Shown in pieces: positions 1 to 64,000 of a stretch of 64,000 nucleotides of DNA; the stretch's first letter is position 1, and the number at the start of each line of letters is the position of its first letter. This DNA comes from Deuterostichococcus epilithicus (Eukaryota; Chlorophyta; Trebouxiophyceae; Prasiolales; Stichococcaceae), in assembly GCA_033439295.1 (NCBI GenBank), contig JAVTLE010000003.1:1302001-1366000 (forward strand), in the 5' to 3' direction. The notes beneath the pieces were generated by a model, which made no database searches, was not told where the DNA came from, and saw nothing but the letters and a program-made list of their open reading frames with translations. A program made the translations under genes and the position numbers.

Positions 1-3000
1 GGTCATGACCATGCAGCTGCGCTCTGAGGTGACCCGTCAACAATCCCCACCTGGCTGCATCGCAAGTGCGACAGTAATGTCTTGATATGTAATATGTATG
101 AAGACCAGCTCGAAGCACAGTCAGCAGCCTTGCATGTCTGTGTCTACCAGACGATGTTATTCTGCACACCTTGCTGAGGCGCACATGAACCCATGTTCTG
201 CAGCGCTGTAGCAGCAGCGATTCCCTCGCGCCTATCCGCGCAGGCAGTCGTTCGTATGTGCGACCTGGTGCCGCAGCAGCAGGGCCAGCAGGCGGCCAAC
301 GGCAGCAGCGGCGGCGGTGGCGCGGCTTCTGCATGGGCAGCACCGGAGCTAGTGGAACGCCTGCTGTCGGAGCTGGGCATCCTGCTGGGCGACGAGGAGG
401 CGGAGCTGGACCCACTGTTTTCCCCAGAGGTGCATTGTGTTTCACTTTGCCATTTCTGCTGACTCCTGCTTGTTGCGGAGCTGGGCATTTTGCTGGGCGG
501 CTATGACGAAGCTGCTAAACCCGCTGTCCTCTCCGAAGGTGCGACTCGGTATTTGTGATGTAGTGGCCTTGCGCTTGCACGCAGGCTCCTACCTGCGTGC
601 TTGACTGGCGCCTCCTGTCTGCTCGTTTGCCTTCAGCTGCATCATCTTAGACGCTGCTGCAGCGGGCGCTGGAACTGCAGCAGTCAGTCCAGCGACCCTT
701 GGTGTCACGCCGGTGTTACGGACTGCGACCTGCGATCACCATTGCCCCCTACTGCAGCAGACAAACAGACACACCAAGTTCTGTCCCGGAATGCGAGCCC
801 ACAACTCGACTCGCGACACAGCACCGACTCAGACGTGCCTCTGAGGCACACGCGCGGTGCGTCCGCAGGCCGCGATGGATCAGGCGGCCGTGCGGGCGAC
901 GGCGGCGGCAGGGCTACTGCGGCTGGGCCGCGCCCGTGATGAGGCGCTGTCTGTGCCGCTGTTCCACCGCATGGCGCTGGCGCTGCAGGACCCTGTACTG
1001 GAGGTGCGGCGCGGCGTCGCCTCCAAGCTGCACCGCACCGTTGCCTGGCTGCAGGTGCGCTGTCGCAGATTCCCCCGAACCTCCTGCCCTGGACTCCTGT
1101 CGTGCCACACAGCTACACTGCACCGTCGCCTGGCTGCGAGTGCGGCTATCGACACTTATCTCATAAACCTCTTGGGGGACGTGTGTGTGCGTTTCATGCT
1201 GATCTGCATCCAGCGCCGGATGCGCAGTCCTGCAACGAGGCAGGCTGAAGCACGGCCGATGATCCACTGCTCGGGCCTGTAGTGCAAGCCCTGCATTGGG
1301 CACCCTGCGCTGGGCTTGCCGCCCTGTGCCCGGTGGAATTGCCACATCACACCTGTACGGGAGCGGACGGACCCTGCCGCACACGTCCATGCACGCGAGT
1401 GTGCTCTGGTGCCTCTGCGCCTGATGTCAGCAACCTAAATCCTGGACCCTAAACCCTGGACCTTGGCTGGCGCGCAGGAGCGGAGCCCGACGCGGGCGTC
1501 CAAGTACGCGAGCATGTACTTCATGACTGGCGCAGACCCGGCAGAGGCCAACCAGTCGGCCGCGCTGCGCTACCTGCGCGAGTTTGTGCACCTCCGCAGG
1601 TTTGAACCCTCTCCTCTTCTGAAGATCCTGGGTGCTCATGTCCTGATGGCGCATACTAAAATCGTGGGTTCTAGTGTCATTGGCAAAGCACGCGCTTGGT
1701 GACAGGGATGGACGGGTGGGCAGGTTGATGGGCTGCCTTCCTCTGCACCGCCTGGTTCTGTGTGTTTTGGCTGCCCACGTCTTGACTGCCACGTCCCGGC
1801 AGGACTCGCTGACATCATCTTGACGCTGACGTGGGTGTCTGGCGAGCAGGAAACGGGGGCACCAGCGGGCGGCGGCAAATGCGGCCAGGCGCGACGCTGG
1901 CGGCACCATCCTACACGAGCTGCCGGAGTTCATGCTGGCGACGGCGCTGCACACCCTTGCGCACCACCCAGACTTCCCCACTGAGGAGGTGACACCATAT
2001 GTTGTACGCTGAGGTTGCTGGAACCGTCGACGATGAGCTCTGCTGGTCGCATGTGGACGCTATTAGGCAGCAATCCTAAGCCGCTGCAACGCTGCACATT
2101 CTTTTTGAGTCCATGAAAACGACGGCGTTCCGATTTCAGGCCGTGGCTCAGCCCCATGCTTGCTGGTGATGAAACCGGTGGTAGAAGCACCTGTACTTCT
2201 GAGTTGGATTCATTTGTATGGTGTCTTCCACAGGCCATCGAGGCAGAGGGGGTGGACCTGTACGACCCGTTCATCCGCATGCTGCAGTTCGGGCTGGAGC
2301 CGCTGCTGCTGGGCGGCGACGGCAGCGCGCCGGGGGCGACGCTGCCGGCGGCTGCCGCCATCCTGCGCGCCATCAAGCGCTCCGAAGACGCCTGCTCGCC
2401 GCCGCTGACGGAGCGCATGTGCGGCTCACTCGATGCTGCTCGGTGCTGCTGGCATCGTCGTTGCCCCTCCCCCGCCTGATGGACAGGCTCCACGCCTGCT
2501 TGCCTCTGCTGTCGTGTCGCAGCCTGCAACAGGCGTGACGGATGCACAGCTTGGAAGGGAAGCCTGCAAGTGAGGTCATGGGCGTCACGTGCATGGGCAT
2601 GGCGCGGCGCGGGTGGGCGCCTCCTGCTGCCTGACACATAGGATGGGCACGCTTCTGTGCACCCTGCACAGACTGAACCGACAGTCGGTCTGCACTGACT
2701 GGGCCAACAGTCAGTAACGCTGTGCGGATCTGCCCCTCCTGTGTCCATCTACAGCCGTGCACGGTTCCAAATACCCAGCAGGGCAATTGACTTTTTAAAC
2801 CCTGTCCTGCAGCCACACTCTGGCAGACCTGGCGCTGCAAGTCGGGGAGGCCATACTGGACAAGGCGCAGCCGAACCGCGAGGGGCGCGGGCCGCCAGAA
2901 AAGGTGCCGGGCGACACGCCGCTGCCCACCAAATTCTACCGCACCAGCAAGTCTGCAGGCGCGCCTCACGTCCCGCTACGCCCGTGTCTCGTCGCTGTGA

Positions 3001-5810: not shown

Positions 5811-8800
5811 ATGCGGGCTCGTGTCGCAATGACGAACATCGTGCAGCGCTGGGTCGCGCTGTTCAAGCGGCGAGCTTGGCGCACGAAGGATGCGGCGACC
5901 CAGCTGCGGCGGTCCGTCGGGGACAATGACCTTCGAAAATGCCTGGGGCCTTTCGACCTCATCATGCTGGGCATCGGTGAGGCGCTGTGGTCTGGCTGAC
6001 TGGCACAGGACCGCTTGCTTGCATCCTTGCCAACCGCTTGCCGCCGGATGTGACCTGTCACGGTGCCAGCATCCCCGGATTCATGTGTGTGTGGCCTCGC
6101 AGGAGGCATCATTGGAGCCGGTGTCTTCGTCCTCACTGGTGTCGCAGCCAATGAGCACGCCGGGTGGGTGGCCGGTGCCGTATGTGGCCAGCGCCTTATG
6201 TGCCCATCCAGCATGCCTGCTGTCCCGCTCTGATGCCAGTTGGACACGAAGCCCAAGCTCGCCAAGCTCCTAAACCCAACATGCCCTTTCTGGGGCTTGT
6301 CTGCCAGTTCGCAACCACACTGAGACTGCAGCCAGCGCAGAGCGGCAAACTCCCATGTCGCAGTGCTACTGCTGACCTTTGCATCCTGGGCGCACCGCAG
6401 GCCGGCGGTGGTCGTGTCATACTCGGTGGCCGCCTTTGCGGCGCTGCTGTCGGCGCTGTCGTACACGGAGTTTGTCGTGGACCTGCCCACCGCTGGCGGT
6501 GCCTTCAACTACATCTCCCTCGTGTTCGGCGAGTTTACAGCCTGGTGAGTGCGAGAAGCGTCCTCCCATGGGACCCTAGATTCAGACAGCTAGGAGTCTG
6601 GTGACGTAACAGCACCAATGACATGTGGTAAGTTGCGGTGGGGCGCGCCCTGTGTCTGCATCTGCAGCCAGCCTGCCACAGGCTGTCCAGCGACCGAGCA
6701 GCTGATGCACATCGAGTCTTCCGGCCATGGCAGTCAGACTGGGCCCATTGCGCGATTCACGCCAAACTTCCCAACATTCTAGGAGGGTGCACAGCAAAGG
6801 CAGCTGCATTGGAGCGTCGCACAAAGCAGCGAGCATTCTGTCATGCAAATCGGCGGCTTGCAACATTTCCGCGGATGCACACTCAGGACAAATGCGCTCG
6901 GAAGTGCCGCCTGACCTACAAATCGAAGTGCAATAGGGGTTGTCCCGCACTACTACGGTTACGGTCCCGCAGGCTGGTGGCCTGCGACCTGACCAGGAAT
7001 GCACAGTCGGGACAGCTACTCCCAGGCCGCAATCGTCAAGCTGCGAGTTGGGACTTGAACCGCTGATTCCGTCTGTCCGCAGGCTGGTGGCGTGCAACCT
7101 GGTCATGGAGTATACACTGTCCAGCGCAGCCATCGCGCGCGGCTTCAGCGCCTACTTGGCCACGCTCGCGGGGCTGGACCCCACCTTCTTCATCCTCAAA
7201 GTCTCCTTCCTCAACCTGGACATCCTGGCCGCCGCGCTGGTAGCGATCCTGTCCGGCATCCTCATCTACGGCACCAAGGCGAGTTCCCCTCACGCCATGG
7301 GCTGTGTCGTTGCCTCACCTTGTCACTTGCATGCTGAATGCACCTTGGGTACGCTTGGTCGCGGCCGCCTTTGTGGCTGCCCTGAAGCGGTGCATGGTTC
7401 GGTGTATACCGGGGCATGTCCCTGCACGGCGGCCTTGCAGCTCAGGCGCCTCACCGGGCTGCGCTGCAGCATCGTGACGCCTGTCGCCAAACGCCCCGCC
7501 ACAGCAACTGACTGTTGCTCGGTCGTCATGAAGCCCGCCCTGAACATGAGAAGCTGCCAGGCAGCCTGTCTGCGTCGGCGCCGCAAGGGTGCGGCCCGTA
7601 AGCCAGCGCTTTCATTCAATATCGCGACGTGCAGCATTGCTGCAGGAGTCAGCCCGTTTCAACACCGTGGTGACCATGGTCAACCTGGCGGTGGTCGTCT
7701 TCGTCGTGTGCGCCGGCATGCCGTACGCCGCCGGCGCCAACTTCAAGCCCTTCGCGCCCTTCGGCGCCCACGGCATCTTCTCGGCCGCCTCCATCGTCTT
7801 CTTCAGCTTCATCGGCTTCGACACTGTGGCCACCACCGCGGAGGAGGTGCGCTGTATCACATCACGTGTTGGGTGTTGTTTCTGGACCAGGCCCACTGTG
7901 CTTTGAGGGATTTGCAGTGCTGACAAGTGGTGGTACAGTTGGGGCACACACGCATGCACACACACATGCACAAACAGATGCTGTGGCAGTTGGGAGCATG
8001 ATGCGCTGTGGCAGATGTGAGCATGATCCCAGCGCGAGCCGCCGCAGGCTGCTGACATCCAGCCCACTGTGGATGTCGCGAGCGCTGGCGCAGCAGCCTG
8101 CATTGCCCAAGTGATCTGGACCGCCCTGCAACCCTCCCGCAGGTGAAGAACCCGGCGGTGGACCTGCCCATCGGCATAGTGGGCAGCCTGCTGGTGTGCG
8201 CCTTTCTGTACGCCCTCATGTGCGTCGTCATCTGCCTCATGGTGCCCTACGACCAGGTGGGTCCGCCACCAACAACCATTGTTGATGCATTCAAACCACT
8301 TCTGACACTCCAAGTCTGCTGCATCCCCCGTGCAGCGAGGACAGCAGCGGCGTCTGGCCCGCTGCGGCCCACGACCAGGTGCAGCTGACCTTCCAGCTTG
8401 CCAGACCAGCGTGAAGCTCAACAGCGTCACCAGACCCTAGACCCTCAGAACCACGGCAGCCCGTCAACCACCTGCTGTCAGGCTCGTGCAGGGAGAGCAG
8501 CATGGGCGCAACCCGGCTGCTCGACACCTGACAAACTGCTGTGCTGTGCGGCTGCAGATTAACGTCAACGCGCCGTTCAGCGAGGCCTTCCATCACATCC
8601 TGACGTCGTCAAACAATGCCAGCGTGGCGAAGAAAGTGTTCCTCAATGTCGCGTCACGCGTCGTGTCCGTCGGCGCCCTCACCGGTGCGCTGGCTGTGCA
8701 CCACACACCCTGGAGACAAGGAACCAGGAGCTCAACTGTGGGTTATCAGGAATGGGCTGCCATCTCTTCGCATCAGCATCGGCCTGCCTCTCTTGGTGAC

Positions 8801-12266: not shown

Positions 12267-15200
12267 TCAGCTGCGGCCGCCCTGCGAGGCGGCCACCCGA
12301 GCACGCTTGCACTGCCGGATGGCCTGCTCGTTGATGGACATCTTGGTGCGGCGCCTGCTGCCGCCGGGCTGGCTCTGCTGGCTCTCGAAGAACAGCGGCG
12401 GGGCCGGCTGCGACGGCTCCGGCAGCACCGCCGTCGACGGGCAGCCCTGTATGCCGATGATGTGCTTGTAGCAAGCTGGTTGGCAGAGGATCATTGCAGT
12501 GAGACGTGCCTTGCAGCGGCAAGCTCATCCTTAATAGTCAGGGCGGCGTGTCAACTGCTTGCTTTGCGCCAGTTTCCCCAAAGTTTCGTTCACTTGCAAT
12601 TGGGGCACACCAGGGAGGAGGTGGCCATGCGGCCGAGACGCTGGCGATGGCCCGACATTGCGTCCAAGGTGGCGCGCTGCGGCTGCCCTGGGCCCGTTTT
12701 GGCCGCCGAGTCTGTGTCCGCCGTGCCTGCAACAGTATGGCCCAGCAGCTTCAGGCCGTCATCCCATCCGCTTGCACGGCCACTGCTTGCTGACTGGTGC
12801 GGCAGATGAGGGTGCCAACCATCAGCTGCGCCAGCACAGGGGGTGACTCGGGCGCTTGTCAGGGGCCTCAGCACCTGGGAGAGTTTTCCTCGGAGACTTC
12901 ATTCCCTGTGCTGCTAGAGCGCGTGGTTGCAGAGCACATCCTCGGGTGAGAGGCATGTTTCTATGGTGAAGCGGGCGTGTGCGCTCGGATCCCACCCGCA
13001 CCGGCGGCCTTGGTAGCGCCCGGCATCTGCGCTTCGAGGCTCTCGGGCGCCGCCCGCTTCCTGCCGCCCGAGCGGCCGCCCTGCTGGCCCTCCACCTGTG
13101 ATGGCTGCCGCTGCGTCGGCTGGTCTGCAACAACATTCGTAGGGACAATCGGTTATGGTTACAACGGATGGCGAATGTGCGGAATGCACGTCGGAGCTCT
13201 TGACCTGTTGGCAAGAGTACCTGAGGTCAGAGTGGGCAGGTGCAGTGGTCGGCCCACCGTGGGAGTCCGAGATAATGGAAGTCGCAGCTGACACGATCGA
13301 TGGCGAAACGTGCGTGGGGATGCCATGGGTTGCTCCCTAGACGCTGACCGAAACACAATCCCCTGAATCATTGTTGATGGGCGCACGTGTGTCACCGGGA
13401 TGCACGGACAGGTCCTGCATCAGCTCGGCGGCCGCGGCGGTGTCGTCCAGCGCCGTCCGCTCCCGCTCCCGTGCCTGAACTGTGCTGCCGCCGGGCGCTG
13501 CCGCCAGCGGCGCCCGGTCCTGCGTCACGCCACCCGCCGCGTTCTGGCTGCGCGGCGCGGCTGCCGCCGCGCCACGCCGCACGCTGTACCTGCAGCCAGA
13601 AGTGGCGGCGTCAATTGGAGTGGGACACCGCAGACTCCTGTGCTCAGGACACGTCATGACATGTCTTATCGTGTGCAGAGCGTGAAGTTCTTCTCGACTG
13701 TGCTCGACAGGGGCGCATCAGGCCCCAGGTGCCGCCAAGCCCACGGTGGCCTGCCTCCACAGCAGCATGCAGTACCACAGACGCACACCTGTCCGGCTGG
13801 CCGGGCACGGCTGCGAGCACGGCCTCGGCCACAAGGCGGGGGATGATGTGGCCGTCCAGCGCCGCAGCGCGCACATCCACCAGCTCCGCCATGATGTCCG
13901 CCACCTCCACCTGCAGCGCATGAAAACATTGGAAGGTTGGTGGCTTAGGGTTTCACAACTAGGGTTCACAGGCCACATTTTTTGCCTTCATGCACCAGCT
14001 CCGCCATGATGTCCGCGACCTCTACCTGCAGCATGTGAACGAGGAATGGGTGTAAGACAGGCGAAACAGCCGCAACCCCAATTCCAGCTCCGCCGCAATG
14101 TCCGCTGCCTCCACTTACATCACACAAGAAAATCATCAATAGTAAAGGTTGATGCTTTGGGGTTGTAGGCCGCTTCCTAGCGCTGCATCGCCCACCTCCA
14201 CCAGCTCCATCGTGAGGGTGGCGACCTCCAACTGCGGCATCCGAGGTAGGGTTCAGGGTTGAGAGCTGCGTCGCCTGCCTGATGATACACTTCATATACC
14301 AGCTGTGCCATGCTTCCCGCAACCTCTCCATCTGCAGTGTGTAATGGATTGGAGGCGGCTATCCTCCTGCTGCACCATCACCTCCGCCATGACGTCAGCC
14401 ACGTGCACATGCGGCGCATCAAGGGGGACCTCGAGCGATGCACGCCCTTGCGCAAGCTCATCTAACCCACCAGCATGCTGCACCTTCAGCGGCGTCTTTG
14501 AGTTGTTTCGAACCTATTCAGTGCATGCAAGGCAAGCCCTTAAGCCTGCAAGCGCCAAGGCGAACCCATCTCGTCGGATGGAGATTCTGCAGCTGGCAGC
14601 CTCACCTCCGAGCGCTTGAGGCAGAAGGCCTTGACCGCATCGTACGCATCCCCCTGCAGGCTCGTCACACCTGCGGCGCATGCACATTCATCATTGCAGC
14701 GAATGCCTCATCCGGGAGGTGGTTTCATGCATTGAGACGGATATGGGCCCATATCATTGTCGCGCATGCGTGATGTCAGAGCAGACAGGCTGAACATGTC
14801 TGCAGAGCTGCGCCGACGTCATGCCCACGCTGATGCGATTATGGTGATGCTGGCATAGCGGTGCCATACCGGGCTCCACATCGCACTGCATGCCCTCGTC
14901 CTTGTCCGCCGCCTCAGTCTCGCGGTCCGAGTCTGCAGTTCGAGTTTGGTCGCCTCTTGGCGCTGTCATCTGAGACAGGATCAGCATCGACAGCCAGTTC
15001 GTTCCTGCAGCAGGACCTGAGCTGGCGCAGCACACCAGGCGCCTGGCACACCTGTGTCGCAGACCGGAGTGAAAGGGGAGCAAGCACATTGCAGTACATT
15101 GCAAAAGGGTGTCAACCCCAGGGTGGCACCTGAGCCATCCGCGGCGCCGCACAGCGTGCTGTTCTGCACCGACTTCTCAACCTCCTCCGCCGCTTCCAGC

Positions 15201-19377: not shown

Positions 19378-19436
<59 letters not shown>

Positions 19437-27500: not shown

Positions 27501-30500
27501 ACCTCGAGCGCAACATCAGGGGGTGCAATGACTTGCGGATGTCTGGGCAAGTTTTCGGCAGGTCGTGTCCAAGCAGATCGTGTTCGAGAATTAATAGAAA
27601 TCTAAAATTCTTTTCAATCTCCCAATGCTGTGCTGTAGCACAACAGGTTCCGCAGCTCTTGGCTTCCCAAGCTGCAGAAGTCGCCCTGATGGTGCAATGC
27701 TGTCGGGCCTTCGGCAACACCGACACCATGCATGCCTGCAGGCGTGCAGTGCAATCACGCCGGTGAACGTTTCCAGGCCACGGCAGCTGGCGTCGCATGT
27801 GCATCGTCCCCCGAGCTGCCACCAGACACCGAGCCCCTGCACCTGGACCTGACCCAGAACCCACCCAGGGGCGCAGGTGTCGCATCCCATGGACCTGGCG
27901 ACGCTGCTGATGCGGGTAGACCTGCGGCGGTACCCGACGCTGGCAGCGTACCTGGCCGACCTGCGCGCCATCGCCACCGCCACGCAGCAGTACTGGGCAG
28001 GCGACGTCCGCGGCGCCCGCGAGGTGATTCAATGAGAACATTCGATACCAAAGTCGTGTGTGGCAAAACCAGGGAATGTGTTGCTGCTGGACGGCTAGGA
28101 AGCGAGCCGCATATCGCGCTGAGCTGGCCCTGCCTGCAGCCTTTGTTCACAGGGCAGTCGAGCTGCTGCTGTTCCTAGGCACTGTCAGGTCTGCAGGACT
28201 GAGGCAGGCCTTTCTCCGGTATCCCGACTTGCTGCGGGATCACATCTGTCAAGAGGCCATGCCGCTTCCAGCGGTGCTGCTGCGCATGTGCGGACTGGCA
28301 AGCGCACCAGTGACACGCTCGCGCCGTTGCCGAATGCCGCTCGACAATCGTGCGGCAGGTCAGCAGAGCGCACGGCCTGGTGGACGAGGCTTGCACCCGC
28401 CTGGCGGAGCGGCTACCGCAGGAGATCGTGGCAAAGACAAATGCGATTGCGGAGCGGGGCGGCCTGCCGCTCGGTCCAGAGGGTGCGCACTGGATGCAGA
28501 CCCCGTCTCCGCAGTCGTACAGCAGCAGTCCGTGCATTTGCAACGCTGCCAAGTTTGAGCTGCCACTCAAAGCATGGCTATATCAATTTGCTGAGACGTC
28601 GCAAATGCTCTGTCACTGCCCACACAGCCAGCCACGCCTGCTGCTTGGTGTGACAGGTCCTGTGATCGTCCTGTGAAGACCCTGTGAATCCTCGCCTACA
28701 TCCTCCAAATGAAGGTATCATCCGTGTGTTGATGTGTTTGCTGTCCTCAGGTGAGCTGGAGGTGCCGCTGCCGCTGGTGACGCGGTCGCACCAGCACCAA
28801 ACGCAGTCGGCGCACACTCCACCTACCAGGTGTGCCAAAAAGTGCTTCGCTGCTGTTGTAGGGTGCACCCCCGATCAGGGTGCAGAATCTTAGAGCTCTG
28901 CGACCCATCAACAGGGAGAATTCCTGAGTGCTGGCTAGTGTCGTGCCTACCTTGTGTCGAAGTTCCCAGGCCGCATGCCGCGCCGCAGCCGCGCCTCAAT
29001 GCGGCAGGACACAATGAGGGAGAGAGCGCGGGCGGGCGCGCGCACCAGAGGCGACCTGCATGTGTGCACCCGAGGTGTATTGGAGAGGATCGCAGTCTCC
29101 AGCTGAGCTTTGACCGCTAACTTCACTCCACGCCCTGACGCGGTGGTAACGCTCTGCATGCCAGCAGGTCGCGGGAGACGCGGGCCGGCGTGCGCACCAA
29201 GGGCAATGCCATTGATGGCAAGGTCATCTTCAACGACCCTGAGGCGCACATGCGGCGCATCCGGGAGGAGCGCCGGCTCGAGCGCCTGTCCGAAGGCGGC
29301 GCTGCGGTGAGCACTGTCCTGCAGTCGACGCGCAGGCACGGCATCAGGGCTCAATGAGCAACACAACATGGATGCAGAGGCTGCTGCGCTGATCATTGCC
29401 AGCCACATCGGCGGGCTGCTGCGCAAGCCGAGACGCCCACGGTGTGGCGCAGGGCCTGGCAGAGGCGTCTCAGCCGGCCACAACGGTGGGAGTCGATGTG
29501 GAGATGGCGGCTGCAGACGCTAACGCGGACATGACGGTAGCCAATGGCCACTCACAGGCGCCGGTCGGTCCCTCATTCGGCTCTGATGCTGGACCGTCAG
29601 CAGCAGCCGAGGTGTGTACGCCCCGGATGCCCTTCCGTGCGTGTCAGACAGTGCTGGCAGCACCTGTTCAGCGTGCAAATCTGCGAGCTTTTATTTGTCG
29701 CAGGCAGCTGTCAGCTGTGACACACATTCCTCTGTGCGCTCGGGCGCAGGCAGCACTTGGCAATGGCGTCCTGCTCAACGGCACCGCGCCAGCCGCCAGC
29801 AACGGTCATGCGGCGGACGATACCGCGCCCAGCGGCGCGGCAGGCGATGGCGCAGGAGACGCCAGGGGCAGAGGCCGGGACTCGGGTCCGCTGGTGGCGC
29901 TGGTGTCCCAGGTGGAGGCGGCTGTTGAGCACGGCGTCAATGCAGACGACGAGCAGGTGCGCTCTCAGCAAACATTTTGGTTGCGGAGACTGCCGCCTGG
30001 GGTAGTTGTGTACTGGATGTTTCTGTCTTGGCTCGCCCGGTGTCATTCTGTTATATGCCTGGGACCGCCAGCTCCAAAATTGTGCCACCTGTAACTCCAA
30101 CTCACAACACCGCCGTCGCACATCGGCAGGTGGCACCAGGCAGCGCGGCGGCATGTGCGTTGCCAGCCGAGCGGCTGGAGCCTCTGGAACTGGTGATCAA
30201 CCCGGAGCCGCCAGGGGGCTCAGCAGGTGCGCCTTGTAGCATTGATGTCAGAGTGTCTGACCGTAGGTTGTATGCCAATGTCGCATAGACACAGCCGCAG
30301 CCATTCGACAGCACACTCATGCCTGTACACAAGCAGCCCTGACTGTGGCTTGACTGTGCCCGCAGAGGAGCCAGCAGCGCCGCAGCCGCAGCCGGCAGAC
30401 GTGGCACGGGCGGCGGCGCTGCAGAGGCGGCTGGTGGGGGTGACGGACGGCTGCCTGCTGGACGAACTGGAGGTACCATTCACCTCCAGTTCGCCATGAC

Positions 30501-30835: not shown

Positions 30836-31250
30836 AAAGGCCTGTCGTTGAGCTCTGTGGGCACCAGCCGTGGTTGGATGCATTGTTGCGTGTGGGTTTT
30901 TCCAGGCACGATGTTGCAGCATTTGTTTTCAACCGGGCTTGTACCACGGATGTGAAAACCTCATGCCTGCGGCCGCCACACTCCGCGCTAGCAACGTGTC
31001 GTGCAGCCGCTGGCACTCGTCACACCGGGTTCGCAGTTGGCTCCGCTAGATTATGGTCGTCCAATTGTCCTTTCCACCGCTGTGGTGTCGTGGCGAAAAA
31101 GGCGCTCCTTCCCAGACTTCGAGATGTCCAGATTCTGGGGAACCTACGACTGAAGCTCTCGTGGGACCTGAGGCGGACCTGAGGCCGAGCGTCAGCATTT
31201 TAGTTTTGATCCGCTGCCCTCTGCCCGGAGTGGCATGCACCGGCCGTAAC
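30836..31250. other. Intergenic region ATAD2-like / CELF-like
   Basis: About 415 bp between tandem genes. No ORF, repeat or RNA was recognised; it should contain the ATAD2 3' end and the promoter and 5' UTR of the RRM gene. Confidence 0.5.
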
Positions 31251-47720: not shown

Positions 47721-50700
47721 ATGGAGGGCGACGAGTCGCTCAGCCCTCTGCCAGCACCCAGGCCGAGGCTGTTCCCCGTGAGCGGCATTCCCAGCACGCC
47801 ACGCTGCGGGCACACGCTCACGGCCCTGGCTGGGCCAGATGGCGACCTGCAGGGAGCCAGGCTGGTGCTGTTTGGTGCGTCGATGTGACGCAAGTGTTTC
47901 CATTGATAACCCAGCATCAAATCGTTGCTCACTCGGCTACGGCAGGAGCTCGCACGTGCCCGCCTGCTTTCGCACCATGCTGGCGTTTGTTGCTCCGATT
48001 AGCCTATGCCCTCTTGTGGTCGTGTGTTACAGCTGTTGGATGACATTTAGGTGGTGCCACGGCCTTGGAAGGATCGCAGCGACCGGGGGAAGGGGGCCCG
48101 CCGGCGTCGCCAGGTCCCAGCTCAGGCACAGGCACGCTCAGCAGCTGAAGCAGGGTTGTACAGTAGTGTGACCGCAGTGCTAACTCGCGCATTTGCAAGC
48201 CTGGTGGGGAAACAGGCATTGATGCGTGTCCATCGTGCTGCAGGCATCCGACTAGCGGGCGCCACAAGCGATGTCCACATCATGGACGTGCGCACGGGCA
48301 AGTGGGAGCGCGCCAATGTGCAGGGCGAGCCGCCATCGCCGCGGGCTGCGCATGCAGCGGCAGCTGTCGGCAGCATGGTCGTCGTGCAGGTGGGAGTCGC
48401 TGTAAATGCGACAAGATACAACCAGCCGAGCTGCATGCAGCAAGACAATGGCTGACTGCATGCTGCATGAGGCTGACTGCACTGGTGGCTTGCATCAAAC
48501 AGGGCGGTATCGGGCCAGCAGGCCTCGCGTCCGAGGACCTGCATGTCCTGGACTTCACAGACTTTGATAAGCCGCGGTGGCACAGGTGAGAACGACTCAA
48601 AAGCCATGTGCCGACCCTCCTTCAGAGTCTGCATGGATTGCTGGGTCTGCAGTGGCTGTGGCAGCAGGCTCAAGGGGCAGCCACCTAATTCACCAACCAT
48701 GGCGGTCCACCTCGGGTGCTGCCAGACCATTCGTCTTTGCATACAACCTCAAGCATCATCATTTCCGCCCTCCACAATCCTTGCATGCCTCTTGGCTCGT
48801 AGGGTGGTGGTGCAGGGGCCGGGGCCCAGTGCGCGGTATGCCCACACGCTGGCGCTGGTGGCTAACCGCTTCCTGGTAGCCATGGGCGGCAACGACGGCA
48901 AGCAGACCCTGGGTGACGCCTGGGCGCTGGACACCTCGGACAAGCCGTACCAGTGGCGAAAGATCACCGACGCTGGGGAGACGCCGGCCGCCAGGTCCGC
49001 TTGCTGCTGCTGCTGCTGCTGCTGTTTCACATCGAGGTGTCAGCCATTGCTGGACACATTACTTGTGTCGCTGGTCCATCCCTGCGCTTAGACTTTCCTC
49101 CCCAACTGTATGTTGCGTGCTGCCCCTGCGTGCTGCTGATCACGCGGATCGTCACAGTGCATGACCTGACATCGGACAACAGACTCACTCTTCGTTGACC
49201 GCAGGATGTACGCGACGGCAGCGGCACGCTCTGACGGCCTGCTGCTGCTGTGCGGCGGACGCGACGCCAACGGAGTGCCGCTGGGCGATGCCTTCGGCCT
49301 CGCGCGGCATCGTGACGGGCGGTGGGAATGGGCTGCGGCGCCCGGCTCCATGCCGGTGGGGCGGTACCAACACGGCGCCGTGTTCGTGGGGGCTCGCCTG
49401 CACATCAGCGGCGGCGCCGTCGGCGGCGGGCGCATGGTGGACGACGCCGCCTCGGTCGCCGTCCTGGACACGGTGAGTCGTGCTCGGGGCTGGCTTGTGC
49501 AGGTGGACCGCCTCGCAAGGGTCGACCAAGGCAGATGATTGGTTTTTATCGACAGCCTTCTGCGGCATGCGCCTCAGGCTGCGGTCGACGGGCTTTGCTT
49601 ACAGGCAAGCATGGTCCTGCGATCCCAGAACTACCTGTCGAGTCCAAGGCTGCACCAGGTCGGTGCATGACGAGCATGCAATCCCAATCCGTAGGCGGCG
49701 GGCGTGTGGTGCACTCCGGTCCCGGCAGGGCCGGCCTCGGAGGAGGTCACGCGGCGCTGCCGGCATGCGGTGGCAGCTGTCGGGCCGTACGTGTTCATTT
49801 TTGGCGGCCTGCGCGGCAGCACCCTGCTGGACGACTTCCTGCTGGCGGACGACAGCAGCGGCACCGAGCTCTCCATCTGCGACCCGCGCTCACCAGCCTG
49901 GTAGGCAGATGTTGTCAGCGTCTGCACCTCAGCTGGTGTCAGCACTTGTAGGTAATGCTTCATTTGAGAGCTGCAACCGTCGTTTTGCAACTCGTGCACA
50001 CCTGTTTGCAGCACGGTCTGCTCCAGCCGACGAGCTTGCATTCCTGCCTGCGCACGTCGGCTGATGCAAACCTGACCGCATGCTGCAGGCGGCAGTGGCT
50101 AGATGCGGAGCACGGCACCCAGGCAGCGGCAGCCATGCTAGCGGAGGCGGCGGCGGAGGAGGCGGCAGCGGCAGCGGCTCTTGGCGTGCGCCGTGTCGGC
50201 ACTATGGAGGACCTGCGCTGCATAGACGAGGACCTGAGCGATGGGTGAGCCGTTCTAAAGCATAAGCTCTGAATGGTGCCCGAGGTGCCCGAGGGCATGA
50301 GGGTATAGGCTTTAGATGTCACAGGGAAGCTGGGCTCCTCTTTAGCACCGCGCAGGACCTGCGCTGCGTAGACGGGAACTTGGACGACAGGCAGGGCAGC
50401 ATGCGGGGCGTAGAGTCGCAGGTGCGGTAGGATCACTGAAACCTTGCCAAGATGACGTTCAGCAGTGGGTCCAGCTGCGGCAGGGCATGACGGCATGGCA
50501 AAGGGGCAGTCATCGTGGGTTTCTCTGAACATTGAGGCGTCCTCACAGCAGGCACATAGAGGCCTGAGCTCACCAGCTCCACAAACGTGCTCCGTGTGCG
50601 AACATGCTTGATACGCCCACGCCTTGCTGCAGGGCACAAGCGGGGTCATCGGAGGAGACACCTGCGGCCAGCCGGCCGGCGGCGCATAGCCCCACCAGCG

Positions 50701-53700
50701 TGACGCTGCAGCAGAAGGGGCTGGACGACCGCAGCCTGCCGCCGACGCCAGACGTGCGGCTGTACCACCGCGCCGTGGTCGTTGCGCAGGAGGCCACAGG
50801 TGAGCACATGCATGTGGTCCCTTACCGTCCTGCCTGCATGCCAACCAGGCAATGGAAATCTCATTCGGGCTGTGTGCCTGTCGCCGCTTGCAATGCTTTC
50901 TTGAGTTGTTGGTTGCTTGAACAGCATCATTTCGGAATCCCTGGCGGCCCTGCCTGCGCCACCTTCCACACATCCCTGACGCATGCAACCGACGACGTCT
51001 TGCGCTGCGCGGCAGGCAGCCTACGAGGCCTCGTGCGGCAGCTGTCCATCGACCAGTTCGAGAATGAGAGCCGCCGCGTCAGCTGCGACTCCTCGAAGGC
51101 TTTCCCGCCAAGCAGCGGTGGCGACGCCCCGCAGCAGCCGGGTGGCACGCCCATGTTCGAGCGCACGGTGAGCTCGTTGGTCGAAATGTGAAGAGCGATG
51201 CTGCCGCCGCCCTTGCGTCATGGCACAGCGACGAGGCGTGACCCAGGTTGCCACCGAGCGCCAATTCGCTGCACCCAGCGCTGCTGCGTGCCGCTGGCGC
51301 CATGGCCATGCGGTGGCCGCCATGGGCCCTCGAGGCCTTGGGGCCGTCTGCCGCTTGCAGCCATGCAATGCGTGTCAGCTCCGATACCGATATACCGCTG
51401 GGTGCTGTGGGAGGTGCTGGCACCATAGTGGAGGGACTCTCAAGGTCCTCAACTGTGTATATCTCAGCCTTTGCTCAAGTACTCCAGATGTCCACTGTGG
51501 CGACCCTTGTCGAACAGGTGTCGGCGCCGACGGTGCACCGCCTGGTCCTGAGGGAGCTGCTGAACCCGCGGCAGTGGCGAGCCCCCGAGGACCGCAAGTT
51601 TCACCTGGACGCAGAGCAGATCAACGAGCTGTGCGACGCCGCCGAGCGCATCTTCAAGGACGAGCCCTCGGTGCTGCGGCTGCGCGGTGAGTCCGTGCAT
51701 CACTGCCGGCGCCAGCGCGGCTGCCGGCGGCCGCTTGTTGCGGAGATGCTTGCACAGCGGCAGTAACGCGACAGCGCCATGCACTGTCGGCTTGGTGTGC
51801 TTTTGGAGGTCCTGGTGCGCTGCACGGGAAAATGAAGTTATCATGCATGCAGCAGACAGGTCTGACAAGTGCACATTTGGCGCCATGCAGCGCCCATCAA
51901 GATCTTCGGCGACCTGCACGGGCAGTTTGGCGACCTGATGCGCCTGTTCGAGGAGTACGGCACGCCGTCCACCGCCGGCGACATCACCTACATCGACTAC
52001 CTGTTCCTGGGTGCGCTGAGCCTCGCCCACCGACTTTAGGCTGCTGACTCTGCCAACGGAAATGCTGCTGACCATGAACGCTGCAGAACATGCCGGACAC
52101 TGCCTCTGCAGGCGACTACGTGGACCGGGGGGCGCACTCGCTGGAGACGATCTGCCTGCTGCTGGCGCTCAAGATCGAGCACCCCAAGCACGTGCACCTC
52201 ATACGTGGCAATCACGAGGTGCGCATTGCATTGCTGCGCATCAGACGGGTTGATGCCGCCAGTGCGGTTGCATGCTGCCCGCACCATTGCGCAGTGCTGG
52301 GGCGATGTCTGTCTCTGCCCTTCCTGGAGCCTGTCAAGGCATCATGTCGACACCCTGCCCGCAATGGAGGAGAGTGCCAGCGAGTCCAGCCGAGTCCAAC
52401 CTCAGGGAACGGACATCCGCCAGTGTTGGACATCCAGTCAACCGAAGTTGGGGGTGCCGTTTCCGACGCAGGCGGCAGACATCAATGCGCTGTTCGGTTT
52501 CCGCATCGAGTGCATTGAGCGGCTGGGCGACCCGCACGGCATCTGGGCCTGGACGCGCCTCAACGCGCTGTTCAACTGGCTGCCGCTGGCCGCCTGCATC
52601 GAGGACAAGATCCTCTGCATGCACGGAGGTGCGTGTGTTCTGACGCTTCCCACATCACACCAGGTTCAGCCGTCCTTCCTGCGCGGTGCCGGGACAGAGA
52701 TCCAGTCTGCCAAGAGTGAGAATAGCTGGTGGCCGAGCTGGTGGCCGGGCTGTCGAAATCGCACGCCTGCCACGCCACAGCTGAGGCCGAGGCTGTGTGC
52801 CTATGGGTCCCGCGCAGGCATTGGGCGCAGCATCAACAGCGTGGACCAGATCGATGCGCTGACGCGGCCGCTGACCATGGAGCACGGCGGCATCGTGCTG
52901 ATGGACCTGCTGTGGTCCGACCCCACCACCAACGACGGCGTAGAGGGCGTGCAGCCCTCGCCCCGCGGCCCGGGGCTCGTCACCTTTGGCCCCGACCGCG
53001 TCAAAGAGTTCTGCAAGGTGGGCTCTTGTGGACTTTGTCATCGAACATCCGTCAGCATCAGTATCGAATCGCCTCGGCCTCCGCCGCCTGGCGGAGTCTT
53101 GCCTCGTGCGCCTCTCAGCCGTCCTGGCTGCTGTGCCTGGCGGAGTCTTGCCGCCCCATTTCGACTGCTGGCGTCCTCGGATGGCGGCGTGCTGCTGAGC
53201 CGAGTCCGGTCACGGGCATCTGCACAGCGCGGCCATGCCTGTGCAGTTGCCATGTAGGAGGCTGCTTGCATCAGGATTTCTCTAGCCCCTCATTCGATGG
53301 TCTGGTCCCATGCTGACGCTCAGGTCCTTCCCTGTCGCAGAACAACGACCTGCAGATGATCGTGCGCGCGCACGAGTGCGTGATGGACGGCTTCGAGCGC
53401 TTTGCGCAGGGCCACCTCATCACGCTGTTCTCTGCCACCAACTACTGCGGCACCGCCAACAATGCTGGCGCCATCCTGGTGCGGAACAACCTATGAGAGA
53501 CGTGCGTTGAAGTCTTTAACTCACCTGAAGTCGGGCTCATTGCCAATCGAATCGTGGCAGCCTCCGTAATGGCGACATTGTTCTCGGTGTGAGAATTTGA
53601 AGTTCTCATTGCGGTCCCGGGAGTGCACGGGTTTCAGCGGGCCTTGAGCGGACGACGCCACAGAAGGGGTTCACACCTCCACTCATCATGCTTGAGGCAG

Positions 53701-55447: not shown

Positions 55448-58400
55448 ATGGCACGTCGCAGGGGCCGCAGCGCGTACACCGTCGTCGCGGCCGCGGCGCC
55501 GGCGCTCGGGGCTGCTCCAGCATCTGGCGCAGCCGGGCAGCCGCCGCTGTCTATTGTGTTTGTTTCCGCAGAGGTGGGCCCCTGGTCGAAGACCGGCGGC
55601 CTGGGCGACGTCACAGGTTGGTGACCTGGTCTGATTGCATTGATGCAGGTTTGTTTCCAGCCTCGGACATGGGTGCAGCCTGCATTGCGCTCCATCACAT
55701 CCTGTGCGAGGCCAAGTGCGCCTACATATTGACCCGAAAGGTCGGCACCGCGCGCAACGAAGTGCACCGACGAACGCATCCGCATGCGCAGGCGGTCTTC
55801 CGATCGCACTGGCAGAGCGCGGCCACCGCGTGTACACAATTGCGCCGCGGTATGACCAGGTGAGCAACACGTACCCACCTTAGTGTTTCGCTCGCAAAGA
55901 GTGTAGCTGACCTTGCCATGAAGCGCCGCCACCTCGCACTTGCCACAATTGCCACTACATGACTGTCAACATCTGCCTCGCTAGGCCATCGAGGCTGATG
56001 TACAAATCCATCATGTCTCTTGGCACACAGTACGCGGATGCGTGGGACACCTCAGTGCGCGTCATCGTCGGCGGCGACAGCGTCGGTTACTTCCACACCG
56101 AGGACAAGGGTGCGGAAGCTGGCGTCGGCCACTGGCAATGCTTTGGTCGACTTGCTTGAATGACATGCATGCATGCCAGTGCTGGTGAACTCCACGGTGC
56201 CACCTGCTTCTGACGAGGAGAGTGTCTCACCTGGAACAAAATCAGGCGTGGACCGTGTCTGGGTGGACCACGACAGCTTCCTTGCGAAGGTACACGTGTC
56301 GGGCTGCACTGCAGGCCCTCTTGCAAGTCAGCCCGCTCATGGTCTCTTCAAATGCAGAGTCGTTGACTGCATTGGGACTGCGCCAGCACACAGCTGGTTC
56401 TCAGGGCTGCCCCCTTTTCACATGGTGCAGGTCACTGGCAAGACTGGGTCGAAGCTGTACGGCCAGAAGTCTGGCGCAGACTACTCGGACAACCTGCAGG
56501 TGGGGACCCACAACTCTTTGGTGCACCCTGCTGGAGCAGGCCATGCGTATCCAGAGACCAACTGCAAAATTGTGAGGTTGCCAGCGGCACATGCCACACT
56601 GCGTCTGCACCAGTCAGAGGGCACCACGACAGACTTTCGATATTGTCATGTTCAGCAGTCTAGTCCACAACCCGGCGCGTCTGCGCCGGTCGGAATGCAC
56701 CACGACAGAGTCTGATCTGATGTCTCGCGCCTGTGTGACATGTGTGCAGCGCTTCCGGCTGTTCAACGTGGCGGCTCTGGAGGCGCTGCGGGCGCTGCCC
56801 TTCGGCCCGGGCGAAGACTGCGTCATTGTGTGCAACGACTGGCACACGGCGCTGCTGCCCGTGCTGCTCAAGGTGGGGAGCTTGCCAGTCAGCCGAGAGA
56901 TGCTGGACGGCGGCTGAATGAAGCCTGGCCAGATCTGGCAGCTGACCTTGCAAGTTCGACTGATGTGCACGTCGTGCCACACATGAGGCAGCGGCGGGTT
57001 GGTTCAAGCCGACAGCTGCTCGACTCGCCAACTACTAGTTGTTCTTCGCTAGGCTCATGAATGCCGTGATATTCACCTCACTTTGCTGGTTCATTTCGCT
57101 CTCCCGGTCCTGACGCAGGATGTGTACCAGCCCCGCGGCGAGTTTCTAAACACGAGATGCGCGCTCACTGTGCACAACATCGCCTTTCAGGTCCGCCTGA
57201 GTCTGCAGATACATCTTCGGGCTTCAGCCGTGCTGTGATCATGCCGCATTTGGGAGGAGAGACTGCTGGTGGCGACAAACGCTTGGCAGCTCTGTGCCTG
57301 GCCTGCATCAGTGTCAGGATTGCCGGGCCATCCTGCAGAAACCGCAGAGAGCCATAGCGCATGGCTTCCTGCCTTTCCTGCAGGGCCGCTTGGTTCAACA
57401 GACACGCCTCTACCCGGCCTGCATCGATGCCAAAGTCCATAGCGCATTGTACCTGTGCACGTTTGCAGGGCCGCTTCTGGGCGAAGCTGTGGCCCGACCT
57501 GGGGCTGCCGGACTCGGCACTGCCCAAGTTTGCCTTCACGGACGGCTACCCGCGTGTGTACGACGAGACCGAGGATCCCGAGGCCAGCCGTGTAGCGACG
57601 CCCGGCACCAAATTCGACAAGCTCAACTGGCTCAAAGCGAGTCCCTAGCGTAAACGGCTTGTAAAGGGCTGCACAAAGTCGCACGTGCCGATTCTGTTTT
57701 TCTTTCAACAGCAGCACATGTTATGTGCCGCAGGCGGGCATCCTGTCGGCAGACAAACTGCTGACAGTGAGTCCGACATATGCTGCGGAGATGAGCGAAA
57801 ATGCCTCCAAGGGCGTTGAGCTCGACGACGTCATCAGGTGCCGTTGCCCCAGCTCATGCTCCTATTGACCGCCGCTGCGCTCAACCAGCCACTGCCTGTG
57901 CCCGCGCCTGTGCTTGCTTGCCTCTGACCACGCTGCAAACACTGTTCTGCAATGCCGTAATTGACGCCAGCGAAGCCCGCACGCAGGGCGGTTGGCGGCG
58001 CCGAGGGCATTGTCAACGGCATGGACACCACAGAGTGGTGCCCCACGCAAGACAAGTTCCTGGACGTTAAATACGACGAGGAGTCGGTCGCCGAGGGCAA
58101 GGCCTTTGCCAAGGAGACGCTGCAGGTGGGTGCGGACAACCCTGATGCCAGGCGCAGTCCCCCATGCAACCTTTGGTGACGGATGTCGTCGCCTACCAGT
58201 GCTCACACACATCTCCGATCCACCTGCAGGCTGAGCTGGGGCTCCCCGTCGACCCCTCGGCGCCACTGTTTGGCTTCATTGGTGCGTATCTTTTCTATTA
58301 CAAAAATAAATTTTAAAAACACAAAAAACAGTCCCCCAAAAAAACACACGTTTTTTTGGGGACTGTCTTTTTGGTTTTTTTTGTTTTTACCAGAGATCCA

Positions 58401-60843: not shown

Positions 60844-61738
60844 GCTGAGGAATCTTGCGTTGCTGGGCCACACCCGGCTGCTGGAGCTCAGGCTAACTGG
60901 CGAATGGATCACATGCCTTCGAAAGGTTTTGGCCGCTGAACCGTGGCGCTGCGGCAGCCGCGCTGTACCATGCTCTCTCTTCACTAGATACCCATAGCTC
61001 TTTTCGGAGACGCTCAGCAATGCCGGTCATGCGTCAGATTTTTGAGATGTTGTGGGTACGCCAGCATCGTGGCGCCGTGACGAAGGGGCCATCCCGCCCG
61101 CAGTTTTGAGAAGAGCGCCATCATTCGAACAGTTTTGCAAGTTTTGGTGTGAGCATCTGCCTGCCCTCTCATGCTACAAGGAGTGTAAGTTCGATGATCG
61201 TCGAAAGCACGAGCTGAAGTTCCGCCAGTTTCCCTCCGTGATTTGCGGCCACAGTCAGGTGCATGTCTGCATGCGCAGGAGGTCCATCCTGATCTCAGGT
61301 GCATGTCCTCCTCAGCAGAGGTCGGAGCGCTCCCATTACGTGTAACAGCACTTCTGCCTTCCATCTGGGCACTGGCGCCTGTGTGCAAGACGAGTTCATA
61401 AGCAGTCATTTCGCCGTGATCCGAGATCACTGCTCGAGACCATTGCCAATGTTGAACTTCCCAACGCCGACCTACAAGCGAATCATGTCGCAGCAGAAAG
61501 CTTCTCATGGCATACCATGGCAGCCATGCAGGCCAGATCGCAGGTTTGCCGTGCGGACGACAGCAGTGGGCACTCCGGTGCGGCAATTCCGCGCAATGCG
61601 GCGCATGGTTGCCTCACGCTGCTGATGTCCAGAAAGTTGGTCGCCTGCCGGAGATTTGATCAAGCTCAGCACATTCTGCTGCGGACGTATATGAGGGTTC
61701 AAGTTCATTGATCCACCGCTGCTGCCTTGCGGGTGCAG
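60844..61738. other. Intergenic region GBSS / PfkB kinase
   Basis: This contains the GBSS 3' UTR and the 5' part of the kinase gene. A TGTAA near 61340 could be a poly(A) signal for GBSS. The first coding exon of the kinase may lie in 61500-61738 but could not be fixed. A plus-strand ATG frame at 61517 does not resemble the family. Confidence 0.4.
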
Positions 61739-64000
61739 TCGGACAACGGGAAGCTGGCGCAAAAGGTGGTCGGCTTGGGCAGCCTGGGAATGGACTACCT
61801 GGCTGCCGTCGACCATTTCCCGGCGCCGGACGAGAAAATGCGCACCGAGCAGCTGGAGGTGAATCGGCAGCACTGTATCGAAGCACCATTGCTGTGGCGA
61901 CCGCATGAGTTGCCCGTGCTTGATCAGCCGGGCAGCCGCCAGTTCCTGGCAGTGGGTACTGGGATGGTCCTGATCAGGTCGACACATTTGCTGATGGATG
62001 TGCGCATGGCGGCACGCCAGTGGGAGCTCCAAGCACCCTTGAGGGTGACCGCATGGGCCGGCGCATACGTCCCGAGGACTCACGGCTGTCTCCCTGCATG
62101 GCTGCGCAGCTGCAGGGCGGCGGCAACTGCGCCAACGCGCTGACGGGGGCGTCGCGCCTTGGACTGCGTACCGCGCTGGTCACTAAGATCGGCGCCGACT
62201 CCATCGGCGACACCCTGGTGCAGGTGCAGCCATGGGGGCGTAGCTGACAGCCCGCGCCGGCAGGGGCTGGCATTGTGGTCAGGCATGTCATGATCCTGCC
62301 AGCCGCAAGGTTGGGGTTTAGGAGGGCTGCCGACAGGGAGGTCAGGCAACGACCCGGGCACGGCCTGTACATTCTGTGAGGGCGACTGGGACACATGCCC
62401 CCGACCATGTGGGGCCGGCCCTACGCCTGCCGCATGGCTTGCCGAAAAAGCCTGACTCGACATCTTCTCAGGAGCTGGAGGGTGACGGCGTGGACGCGTC
62501 GCTCGTCCTGCGCGCCGAGGGCTTCCCCTCGCCCTTCACATACACCATTGTCGACCGGTCAGGCGCGCCTCTGAGAATGCGTGGCTGCACCCCTTCTGCT
62601 GCAGCCTTGACTCGAGCAAACATCATTAATGCAGGCGAGCAGTTCGCCAACCTGATTTGAGCACAGGATGATGCATCAGGCAGGCCCATGCACAAGTTTC
62701 GTCATGACTTGCTGGCGAGCCTGGCGGAGCGCCATGATGCACATCTGCTGACTGTCTGAATGTCGCTTGCGCTGTGGCTGCGCCACAGGCGGCACGCGGT
62801 GCTGCATTCACACGCCCAGCGCGCCGCTGCAGCCGGGCGACATCAGCCGCGAGCTGGTCGAGCAGGCACTGGAGGGCGCCTCGCTGGCGTTTTTCGACGG
62901 CCGCCTGACGGAGGCGGCGCTGGTGCTGGCCGACGCCGCGCGGGTGAGCGCCAGCAAAACCGTTCGTCCTGCAGCTGGACTAAAACGAAGGTGTTACTGG
63001 ATGCCGCACTGGCGATGTCTGGCAGCTGGTTGGTGAACGACGCGCAAAGAACAATGCTGATTCGGGCGTGCGCAGCTGTGACGACGGTCGCCAGGGTGTC
63101 CATGCTGATAGTGACTCGCTGTCGGCCGTCGCGGCGCTGGCGCCCTCGGCTGGCCGAAGCTGGGACCGCGTGGCTTTGGCCTTGTCGCTCGAGACCCCTG
63201 CCAGGACTTGGTCAGCGAGAAATTTTGCACGCCCACAGGAGAGAGGCATCCCCATCTTGGTGGAAGCGGAGCGTATACGCAATCGCCTGCCGGAGCTGCT
63301 GCAGCGCGCCAGCTTCGTCACCAGCTCAGCGCACTACCCAACGGTGCGAGCTAGCGGCAACTGCTGTCTACCTTGTAACCTTGCTCCAAGCCGTTTATTT
63401 TTCTATCGGTACTATTGTCACGTCTGAAGTCAGCGCCAGCGCCCAGGTCAAAGCTGAACCCCGCAGGCATCGCGCTGCACCACTCCTGAGGCGGCATACG
63501 TGACGCCATCGGAGTGTAACAGGCCCATGCGACCCATGCATGCCGTGATATCAAGTGACGCCTTTGACGCAGGAGGCGATGGGTGAGGATCGGCAGGGCG
63601 ATGCGATGGTGGCGATGCTGGCGTCGCTGCCGGACGCCCGCTGGCTTATCAGCACCCAAGGTGGGTGAGACGCCTCGTGCAGGAGTCGTGGGGCGGCTGC
63701 TGACAGCCAAGCAGATGATTGTCGAGGGCTTGTGCGGGGTTTGTGGGCGTGCAAAGCAGGCACTGGTCACTCGGCACCTGTCTGGGTCGCGGGGCAAGCC
63801 TGCGACCTGCTGAAACGTGTGGCATGCCCACTCCCCAGCTCAGCTGCAGTGGGTGGCGTTGGTGAGGGTGCTGCAGAGGCCGAACTTACAACTCTTCATA
63901 TATATCTAAAATCACCTCTTCGAGCAGAACACGAGCTTGGTTCAGCTGCCCACTTGCGCCGCCTACAGGCAGTCGAGGCAGCATCCTGCTGGAGCGCGCC
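61739..64000 (+). CDS. PfkB-family carbohydrate kinase, plant-like (partial at right edge, 5' exon not found)
   Basis: PfkB (ribokinase-family) enzymes phosphorylate sugars or nucleosides; the substrate of this plant-like clade is not known from sequence. Exons: 61739-61858 (VVGLGSLGMDYLAAVDHFP, the start of the fold), about 62116-62220 (GGGNCANALTGASRLGLRTALVTKIGADSIGD, which includes the PfkB signature-1 glycines), about 62472-62557 (ELEGDGVDASLV, PSPFTYTIVD), about 62789-62943 (TRCCIHTPSAPLQPGDIS, ASLAFFDGRLTEAALVLADAA), about 63240-63343 (RGIPILVEAERIRNRLPELL), about 63573-63660 (AMVAMLASLPDARWLISTQG) and a last piece from about 63968 (GSILLERA) that runs off the window. The C-terminal GAGD catalytic motif must lie beyond the right edge. 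The start is not located because the first exon begins at an acceptor. Confidence 0.82.

What the first reader, a model, noticed from the sequence alone, without database searches (positions are those of the whole stretch)
1..64000. Recurrent pattern: introns seeded or enlarged by local tandem duplication of exon edges
Taking the individual cases together (PDS5 twice, transporter, HOP1/ASY1, CELF, PPKL, GBSS), at least six of eleven genes show intron segments matching the adjoining exon edge at an 85-145 bp step. Tandem duplication of a segment containing AGGT is a proposed route of intron gain. Here the similar step size might also reflect nucleosome-linker or replication-scale duplication. 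It would explain the high intron number in this lineage.
Basis: inference. Interest (0 to 1): 0.75.

Follow-up and report, generated by a model that had tools for sequence, protein, structure and literature searches.

The report
Exon-edge copies that lengthened algal introns
In this algal genome about one intron in twenty carries a decayed copy of the edge of its neighbouring exon, splice site often included, lying about 75 to 180 bases away, which suggests that older introns were lengthened by short local duplications rather than newly created by them.

Summary
Decayed copies of exon edges, often with the splice site, lie in the adjoining intron at an offset of about 75-180 bp (median 107.5). 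They occur at 33 of 1108 exon edges tested, against 5 of 2216 with unrelated introns, 1 of 1108 reverse-complemented and 1 of 1096 non-adjacent introns of the same gene. Of 38 cases, 32 lie in 200 kb of another contig.

The interpretation splits. "Seeded" is not supported: the AGGT geometry (offset = intron length) shows no clear excess in 554 introns and fits 0 of 38 cases. For the transporter, three paralogues share the intron position and phase; only the window gene has the copy (538 nt against 145 and 150). "Enlarged" is supported, partly by longer host introns.

Best reading: short tandem duplications straddling a splice junction, tolerated because splicing keeps the outer sites. Unexplained: homology fades on the intron side faster than a simple model predicts, and intron-internal repeats have mostly other offsets (15-75 bp). 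CELF and GBSS were not confirmed. Intron number is not explained.

The parts
370..429 (+). PDS5-like gene: 3' edge of exon (source copy), donor at 430; aligned stretch 370-408, rest by eye
   Evidence: d = 108
478..537 (+). decayed copy of that exon edge inside intron 430-868; aligned stretch 478-516, continuation to a donor-like GTGCGA at 538 by eye
   Evidence: score 17.5
1026..1054 (+). PDS5-like gene: 3' edge of exon, donor at 1055
   Evidence: d = 85
1111..1144 (+). decayed copy of exon edge plus donor inside intron 1055-1477
   Evidence: intron-side extension score 18.3
1368..1399 (+). weaker copy of downstream exon start (1481-1512) in the same intron, d = 113
   Evidence: score 12, p 0.003; below the main threshold
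2492..2514 (+). weaker copy of exon edge 2388-2410 in intron 2419-2812, d = 104
   Evidence: score 13, 0 of 300 controls; below the main threshold
6545..7082 (+). 538-nt intron of the amino-acid transporter, position and phase shared with two paralogues (145 and 150 nt)
6967..6991 (+). copy of acceptor plus exon start (7077-7101) inside that intron, d = 110
13874..13910 (-). HOP1/ASY1 (HORMA) gene: 5' edge of exon (source copy)
13989..14415 (-). array of decayed copies of that exon start at d = 115, 204, 321 and 498 in the upstream intron region
29022..29046 (+). copy of exon start 29175-29199 in intron 28830-29167, in or just after the AAA-ATPase gene, d = 153
50345..50387 (+). copy of PPKL exon edge 50199-50241, d = 146; the gene finder called part of it an exon (50325-50426), probably wrongly
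51372..51416 (+). copy of PPKL exon start 51518-51562 in intron 51168-51517, d = 146
   Evidence: score 14.5, p 0.007
56601..56709 (+). GBSS: tandem duplication inside an intron (d = 76), not an exon-edge copy

Best explanation
Short tandem duplications, about 75-180 bp per step, occurred across an exon-intron junction. One copy of the exon edge stays in the mRNA and is conserved. The other falls on the intron side, is removed by splicing at the outer site, and decays. Each event lengthens an existing intron by one step, and repeated events give arrays, as in HOP1 and a transporter paralogue. Shown: the offset peak, the adjacency, the same orientation, the splice-site remnant in many copies, the non-coding decay of the copies, and one intron shared by three paralogues with a copy found in only one. 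Longer host introns agree with it. Inferred: that the event is a contiguous tandem duplication (most likely from repair of staggered nicks or breaks), and that outer splice-site use makes it tolerable.
For: Offset peak 75-125 bp in direct repeats, no inverted pair in those bins. Exon-edge matches 33/1108 against 5/2216, 1/1108 and 1/1096 in controls. 25 of 38 copies match to within 3 nt of the exon edge. Of the 34 of 38 cases that align within 12 nt of the edge, copies keep AG in 14/21 acceptor and GT/GC in 9/13 donor cases, against 6% and 17% at random intron positions. Mismatches by codon position 66/47/86, plus 21 gaps of which 19 are not multiples of three: one neutral copy, not two coding ones. 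Host introns median 389 (n = 37) against 217.5 nt, p = 7e-11. Transporter intron shared in position and phase by three paralogues, copy found only in the 538-nt one (none at score >=13 in the other two). C7 paralogue: next intron 401 nt with copies at d = 130 and 219. Intron-side homology above the splice-site control in 11/38 at score >=10 against 6%. Full-unit tandem repeats that overlap both exon and intron exist at periods 42, 49, 72 and 77 (the 49 and 77 ones lie in low-confidence gene models).
Against: Intron-side homology is weaker than a contiguous tandem duplication of the same age predicts: of 33 cases simulated (5 of 38 dropped), 14 have p < 0.05 and 1 lies above its simulated median, Fisher 1e-12. 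One of the low values (C1:40533) is a case whose whole 77-bp unit is in fact repeated, so its exon edge is mis-set. With a slow or frozen exon Fisher stays at 6e-9 and 1.5e-8; it weakens to 5e-3 only with a frozen exon and frequent, long indels. Well-conserved copies such as C1:170278 and C1:166648 lose homology at or near the junction. TRF found no full-unit repeat above period 77, and intron-internal repeats have mostly offsets of 15-75, so the edge copies are not simply the same process seen elsewhere. The length difference of host introns is partly ascertainment, since only longer introns can hold a copy at d > 75.
Confidence: 0.62

Rival explanations
1. Exon-limited copying or exon-to-copy gene conversion: only the exon edge and a few intron bases are copied into the intron with a spacer, or the exon keeps converting its intronic copy, so the exon part stays similar while flanks decay.
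For: 27 of 38 cases have intron-side extension below 10, less than simulated; examples. Offset range mostly separate from intron-internal repeats, and no full-unit repeat above period 77.
Against: 11 of 38 cases show intron-side homology at score >=10, some strong (C1:155823 score 30, C1:188636 19.7, window 1055 18.3, C1:25798 17.5). Fast indel turnover in introns could mimic it.
Confidence: 0.2
2. Introns seeded by tandem duplication of an AGGT-containing exon segment (Rogers/Hellsten model): the new intron equals the duplicated unit.
For: Duplication adjacent to splice sites is common here; a slight excess at low scores in the direct test (>=10: 3/554 vs 6/2770 and 4/554 vs 4/2770).
Against: 0/38 cases have offset within 15 nt of intron length. 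At score >=8 the direct test is at control level (15/554 vs 97/2770 and 19/554 vs 98/2770). Transporter intron older than the copy.
Confidence: 0.04
3. The intronic copies are unannotated alternative exons or other functional elements.
For: Copies often keep good splice-site scores; in C1:166648 all 5 mismatches are at third codon positions, and in two further copies both of 2.
Against: Overall 43% of mismatches at third positions; 19 of 21 gaps break the frame; stops in two copies; offsets not biased to multiples of three (8 of 38, counted).
Confidence: 0.08
4. A mobile element (introner-like) inserting at exon edges with a long target-site duplication.
For: Would give direct repeats flanking unrelated sequence.
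Against: Spacers are unrelated to each other (0/655 pairs at score >=12, control 1/562) and only 13 of 674 introns match another intron at E < 1e-4.
Confidence: 0.03
5. Chance similarity, low complexity or gene-model error.
For: Gene models are self-trained without RNA evidence; a few copies were called as small exons, and at least one exon edge (C1:40533) looks mis-set.
Against: Model-free offset peak and three controls; loci on other contigs show further examples.
Confidence: 0.03

Closest known systems
Tandem duplication across an intron-exon boundary in a potato RdRp gene (PMC4974935; abstract and introduction read)
   Same: A local duplication crossing one intron-exon boundary, with splicing signals inherited from the parent junction.
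   Different: There it made a new intron with a donor from former exon sequence; here the existing intron only becomes longer, and the pattern recurs in dozens of introns.
Rogers/Hellsten AGGT exon duplication (reviewed in PMC3443670, passages read)
   Same: Tandem duplication next to splice sites with an unchanged protein.
   Different: New intron equals the duplicated unit; that geometry shows no clear excess here.
Drosophila novel introns by exon duplication (PMC2891723, passages read)
   Same: Exonic duplicate ends up as intron sequence.
   Different: Concerns new intron positions of the size of the duplication, few cases, in Drosophila.
Small tandem duplications from break repair (CST/Pol alpha-primase, PMC8355091, passages read; plant nick-pair work known from recall and a mention in those passages)
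   Same: A candidate mutational source for short direct duplications.
   Different: Mechanism shown in mouse cells at induced breaks; nothing here identifies the repair pathway.

Membership tests
Intron gain by AGGT exon duplication (Rogers/Hellsten) | Offset between repeats equals intron length | tested here: not met
   0/38 within 15 nt
Intron gain by AGGT exon duplication (Rogers/Hellsten) | Intron end resembles upstream exon end, intron start resembles downstream exon start | tested here: not met
   At score >=8: 15/554 vs 97/2770 and 19/554 vs 98/2770; at >=10: 3/554 vs 6/2770 and 4/554 vs 4/2770, a slight excess; at >=12: 0 vs 1 and 1 vs 0
Intron gain by AGGT exon duplication (Rogers/Hellsten) | Intron absent before the duplication | tested here: not met
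   One case testable: transporter intron shared by three paralogues
Junction-straddling tandem duplication (as in potato RdRp) | Direct repeat containing exon edge and splice site next to the junction | tested here: met
   (canonical dinucleotide kept in 23 of 34 copies)
Junction-straddling tandem duplication (as in potato RdRp) | Intron part of the unit is duplicated too (contiguous unit) | tested here: inconclusive
   11/38 with intron-side score >=10 vs 6% control, but weaker than simulated
Junction-straddling tandem duplication (as in potato RdRp) | Presence/absence in close relatives | not testable with these tools
   No relative of this genome is held
Introner elements | Many introns share one sequence family | tested here: not met
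   13 of 674 introns match another

The most novel reading that the evidence does not exclude
A distinct process acts at exon-intron junctions in this lineage. It copies the exon edge with its splice site into the adjoining intron at a preferred 75-180 bp, in direct orientation only, without carrying most of the neighbouring intron, or keeps those copies similar by conversion. It leaves datable exon fossils that record intron growth genome-wide.
Probability: 0.2. Interest if true: 0.75.

Novelty: new variant of a known kind. Interest (0 to 1): 0.52.

Why it matters
How introns become longer without transposons is, to my knowledge, poorly documented. Because one copy is held by coding selection, exon-edge copies should stay visible after ordinary intron duplications have decayed. 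They could serve as a marker to count and date intron growth in any genome, and to ask why the step size is near 100 bp.

Tried and rejected
The first gene-finder trainings drifted to many tiny exons and were replaced. The extended alignment display aligned the copy to itself and was not used; one search replaced it. Continuation of copies into the next exon, as a cDNA origin would give, was tested: mean z 0.30 in 37; z exceeds 2 in 2 of 37, both from the one intron C1:113734-114021, which holds copies of both flanking exons. Introner or transposon origin tested and disfavoured. Paralogue searches with a starch-synthase fragment and a purple-acid-phosphatase-like fragment were not carried through to an intron comparison: GBSS has no edge copy to compare, and the phosphatase paralogue aligned only in part. 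In the paralogue scan (54 predicted introns) the models of L025 and L027 contain many stops and are unreliable; L027 nevertheless holds a 62-base repeat at d = 111, and C7 a further weak match (score 13, below the threshold). In print: the rows listed by the searches and 63 of the held open-access library show no report of introns lengthened genome-wide by exon-edge copies; listings are capped and subscription papers are mostly not held, so this is weak.
Full report
What was examined. The window is G000:C3:1302001-1366000 of a 46.8 Mb, 21-contig assembly for which no relatives are held.

Gene models. I wrote a self-trained exon-intron finder. It gives 759 introns in 264 kb, 8.2 per kb of coding sequence, donors CAG|GTGCGC-like and acceptors TGCAG|G-like. 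There is no RNA support. Tests used 554 confident introns, or 674 after dropping small frame-neutral exons. In the window I count eleven genes from the predicted proteins: PDS5 (Pfam match below its curated cut-off), an amino-acid transporter, HOP1/ASY1 (HORMA), a WD40 gene (by eye), an AAA-ATPase, a CELF-like RRM gene, TCP1, exostosin, PPKL (metallophosphatase domain; Kelch part by eye), a starch synthase of the GBSS type, and a pfkB kinase (Pfam domains).

Is it there? A scan that uses no gene models finds an excess of direct repeats at 75-125 bp (24 pairs at score >=17) and 1 pair at 500-3000 bp; no inverted pair falls between 75 and 125 bp. Of 44 pairs with offset 50-250 and score >=16, 22 join exon with non-exon sequence, 6 are exon-exon, 6 lie outside exons and 10 are mixed; some of the predicted exons in the second and fourth groups are probably copies miscalled as exons. 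Comparing each exon edge with its own intron gives 13/554 donor-side and 20/554 acceptor-side matches at score >=14, against 5/2216 with other introns, 1/1108 with reverse complements and 1/1096 with non-adjacent introns of the same gene. Adding five lower-confidence cases (HOP1 among them) gives 38 edges in 37 introns of 674; 6 are in the window and 32 in C1. Offsets have median 107.5 and 5-95 percentiles 76-158; 36 of 38 lie at 77-174, the others at 49 and 72. The threshold of 14 was chosen after seeing the controls.

Does it seed or enlarge? If a duplication created the intron, its length would equal the offset. No case of 38 comes within 15 nt. A direct test of the AGGT geometry in 554 introns gives counts close to control: at score >=8, 15 against about 19 expected and 19 against about 20; at >=10, 3 against 1.2 and 4 against 0.8, a slight excess at low scores. 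Host introns are longer (median 389 against 217.5 nt, p = 7e-11), though partly because only longer introns can hold a copy. The transporter gives a historical test: its intron after GEFTA|W, phase 2, sits at the same position and phase in two paralogues on C7 and C12, with lengths 145 and 150 nt and no copy at score >=13, whereas the window gene has 538 nt and a copy at d = 110. The C7 paralogue has in its next intron two decayed copies at d = 130 and 219; that intron is 401 nt, and by the protein alignment C12 has a 167-nt intron one base away. 401 minus 219 is 182, close to 167. This is suggestive, not proof.

What state are the copies in? Mismatches by codon position are 66, 47 and 86 over 461, 457 and 452 sites; there are 21 gaps, 19 of them not multiples of three, and two copies contain a stop in the matched stretch. 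This fits one constrained exon and one freely decaying copy. Of 34 cases whose alignment comes within 12 nt of the edge (4 of 38 left out), 23 keep the canonical dinucleotide at the mapped edge, so the duplicated piece usually crosses the junction. 25 of 38 match to within 3 nt of the exon edge.

What does not fit. If exon edge and adjoining intron were duplicated together, the intron parts should still be recognisably similar. They are above control in about 30% of cases (11/38 at score >=10 against 6%), but far below prediction: in matched simulations of 33 cases (5 of 38 dropped for edge distance or short offset) 14 have p < 0.05 and one lies above its simulated median (Fisher 1e-12). One low value, C1:40533, belongs to a case whose full 77-bp unit is repeated and reflects a mis-set exon edge. 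With a slow or frozen exon the result stays at 6e-9 and 1.5e-8; only a frozen exon with frequent, long indels brings it to 5e-3. A simulation at fixed age fits the intron-side numbers near t = 0.25 with indel/substitution 0.25, which would mean mostly old events, but its exon scores are lower than observed (median 16.5 against 19.5). Also, of 36-base exon-edge windows, matches at >=22/36 fall at offsets of 75 or more in 16 donor-side and 18 acceptor-side counts, and below 75 in 2 and 0 (at >=24/36, none below 75). Intron-internal windows give 18 counts at 15-75 and 6 above at >=22/36, and 7 and 0 at >=24/36. The full-unit tandem repeats found by TRF reach period 77. So either the edge duplications belong to an older episode with larger units, or short ones are not tolerated at junctions, or the edge process is different. 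I cannot decide between these. Assembly collapse of identical repeats longer than a read could also hide young cases (inference).

Other checks. No introner family: 13 of 674 introns match another intron, and spacers are unrelated. No cDNA-like continuation into the next exon, except one intron holding copies of both flanking exons (C1:113734-114021). In the literature seen, the nearest case is a duplication across one intron-exon boundary that created an intron in a potato gene (PMC4974935, abstract and introduction read). The AGGT model is reviewed in PMC3443670 (passages), Drosophila exon-duplication introns in PMC2891723 (passages), and break-repair duplications in PMC8355091 (passages).

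Verdict. Observation confirmed, extended to other contigs, and corrected in detail. Interpretation half right: the evidence favours introns lengthened, not created, and intron number is not explained. The mechanism is most likely junction-straddling tandem duplication (0.62), with exon-limited copying or conversion as the serious rival (0.2).

Noticed in passing
whole 264-kb sample: About 12% of confident introns start with GC (66 of 554), unusually high if real; models lack RNA support.
   Followed up: partly
fetched C1 stretch 113734-114021 (L013), ATG3-like gene by eye: One 288-nt intron holds copies of both flanking exon edges (d = 113 and 146) separated by about 25 nt starting GT and ending AG.
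   Followed up: partly
window 13874-14415: HOP1 exon start is repeated in an array of four decayed copies at successive spacings of about 115, 89, 117 and 177.
   Followed up: partly
L027 351-412 and 462-523: A 62-base repeat at d = 111 with an acceptor, in a starch-synthase-like locus on contig C11.
   Followed up: partly
fetched C1 stretch 139295-142205 and 142439-145009: Adjacent, divergently oriented predicted genes with introns about 80% alike; possibly usable to date intron change.
   Followed up: no
fetched C1 stretch 162935-163061: Near-perfect 64-bp tandem duplication (98%) inside an intron, an example of a recent event.
   Followed up: no
window, CELF-like gene: Five N in the window; undetermined residues fall in the CELF-like protein.
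   Followed up: no
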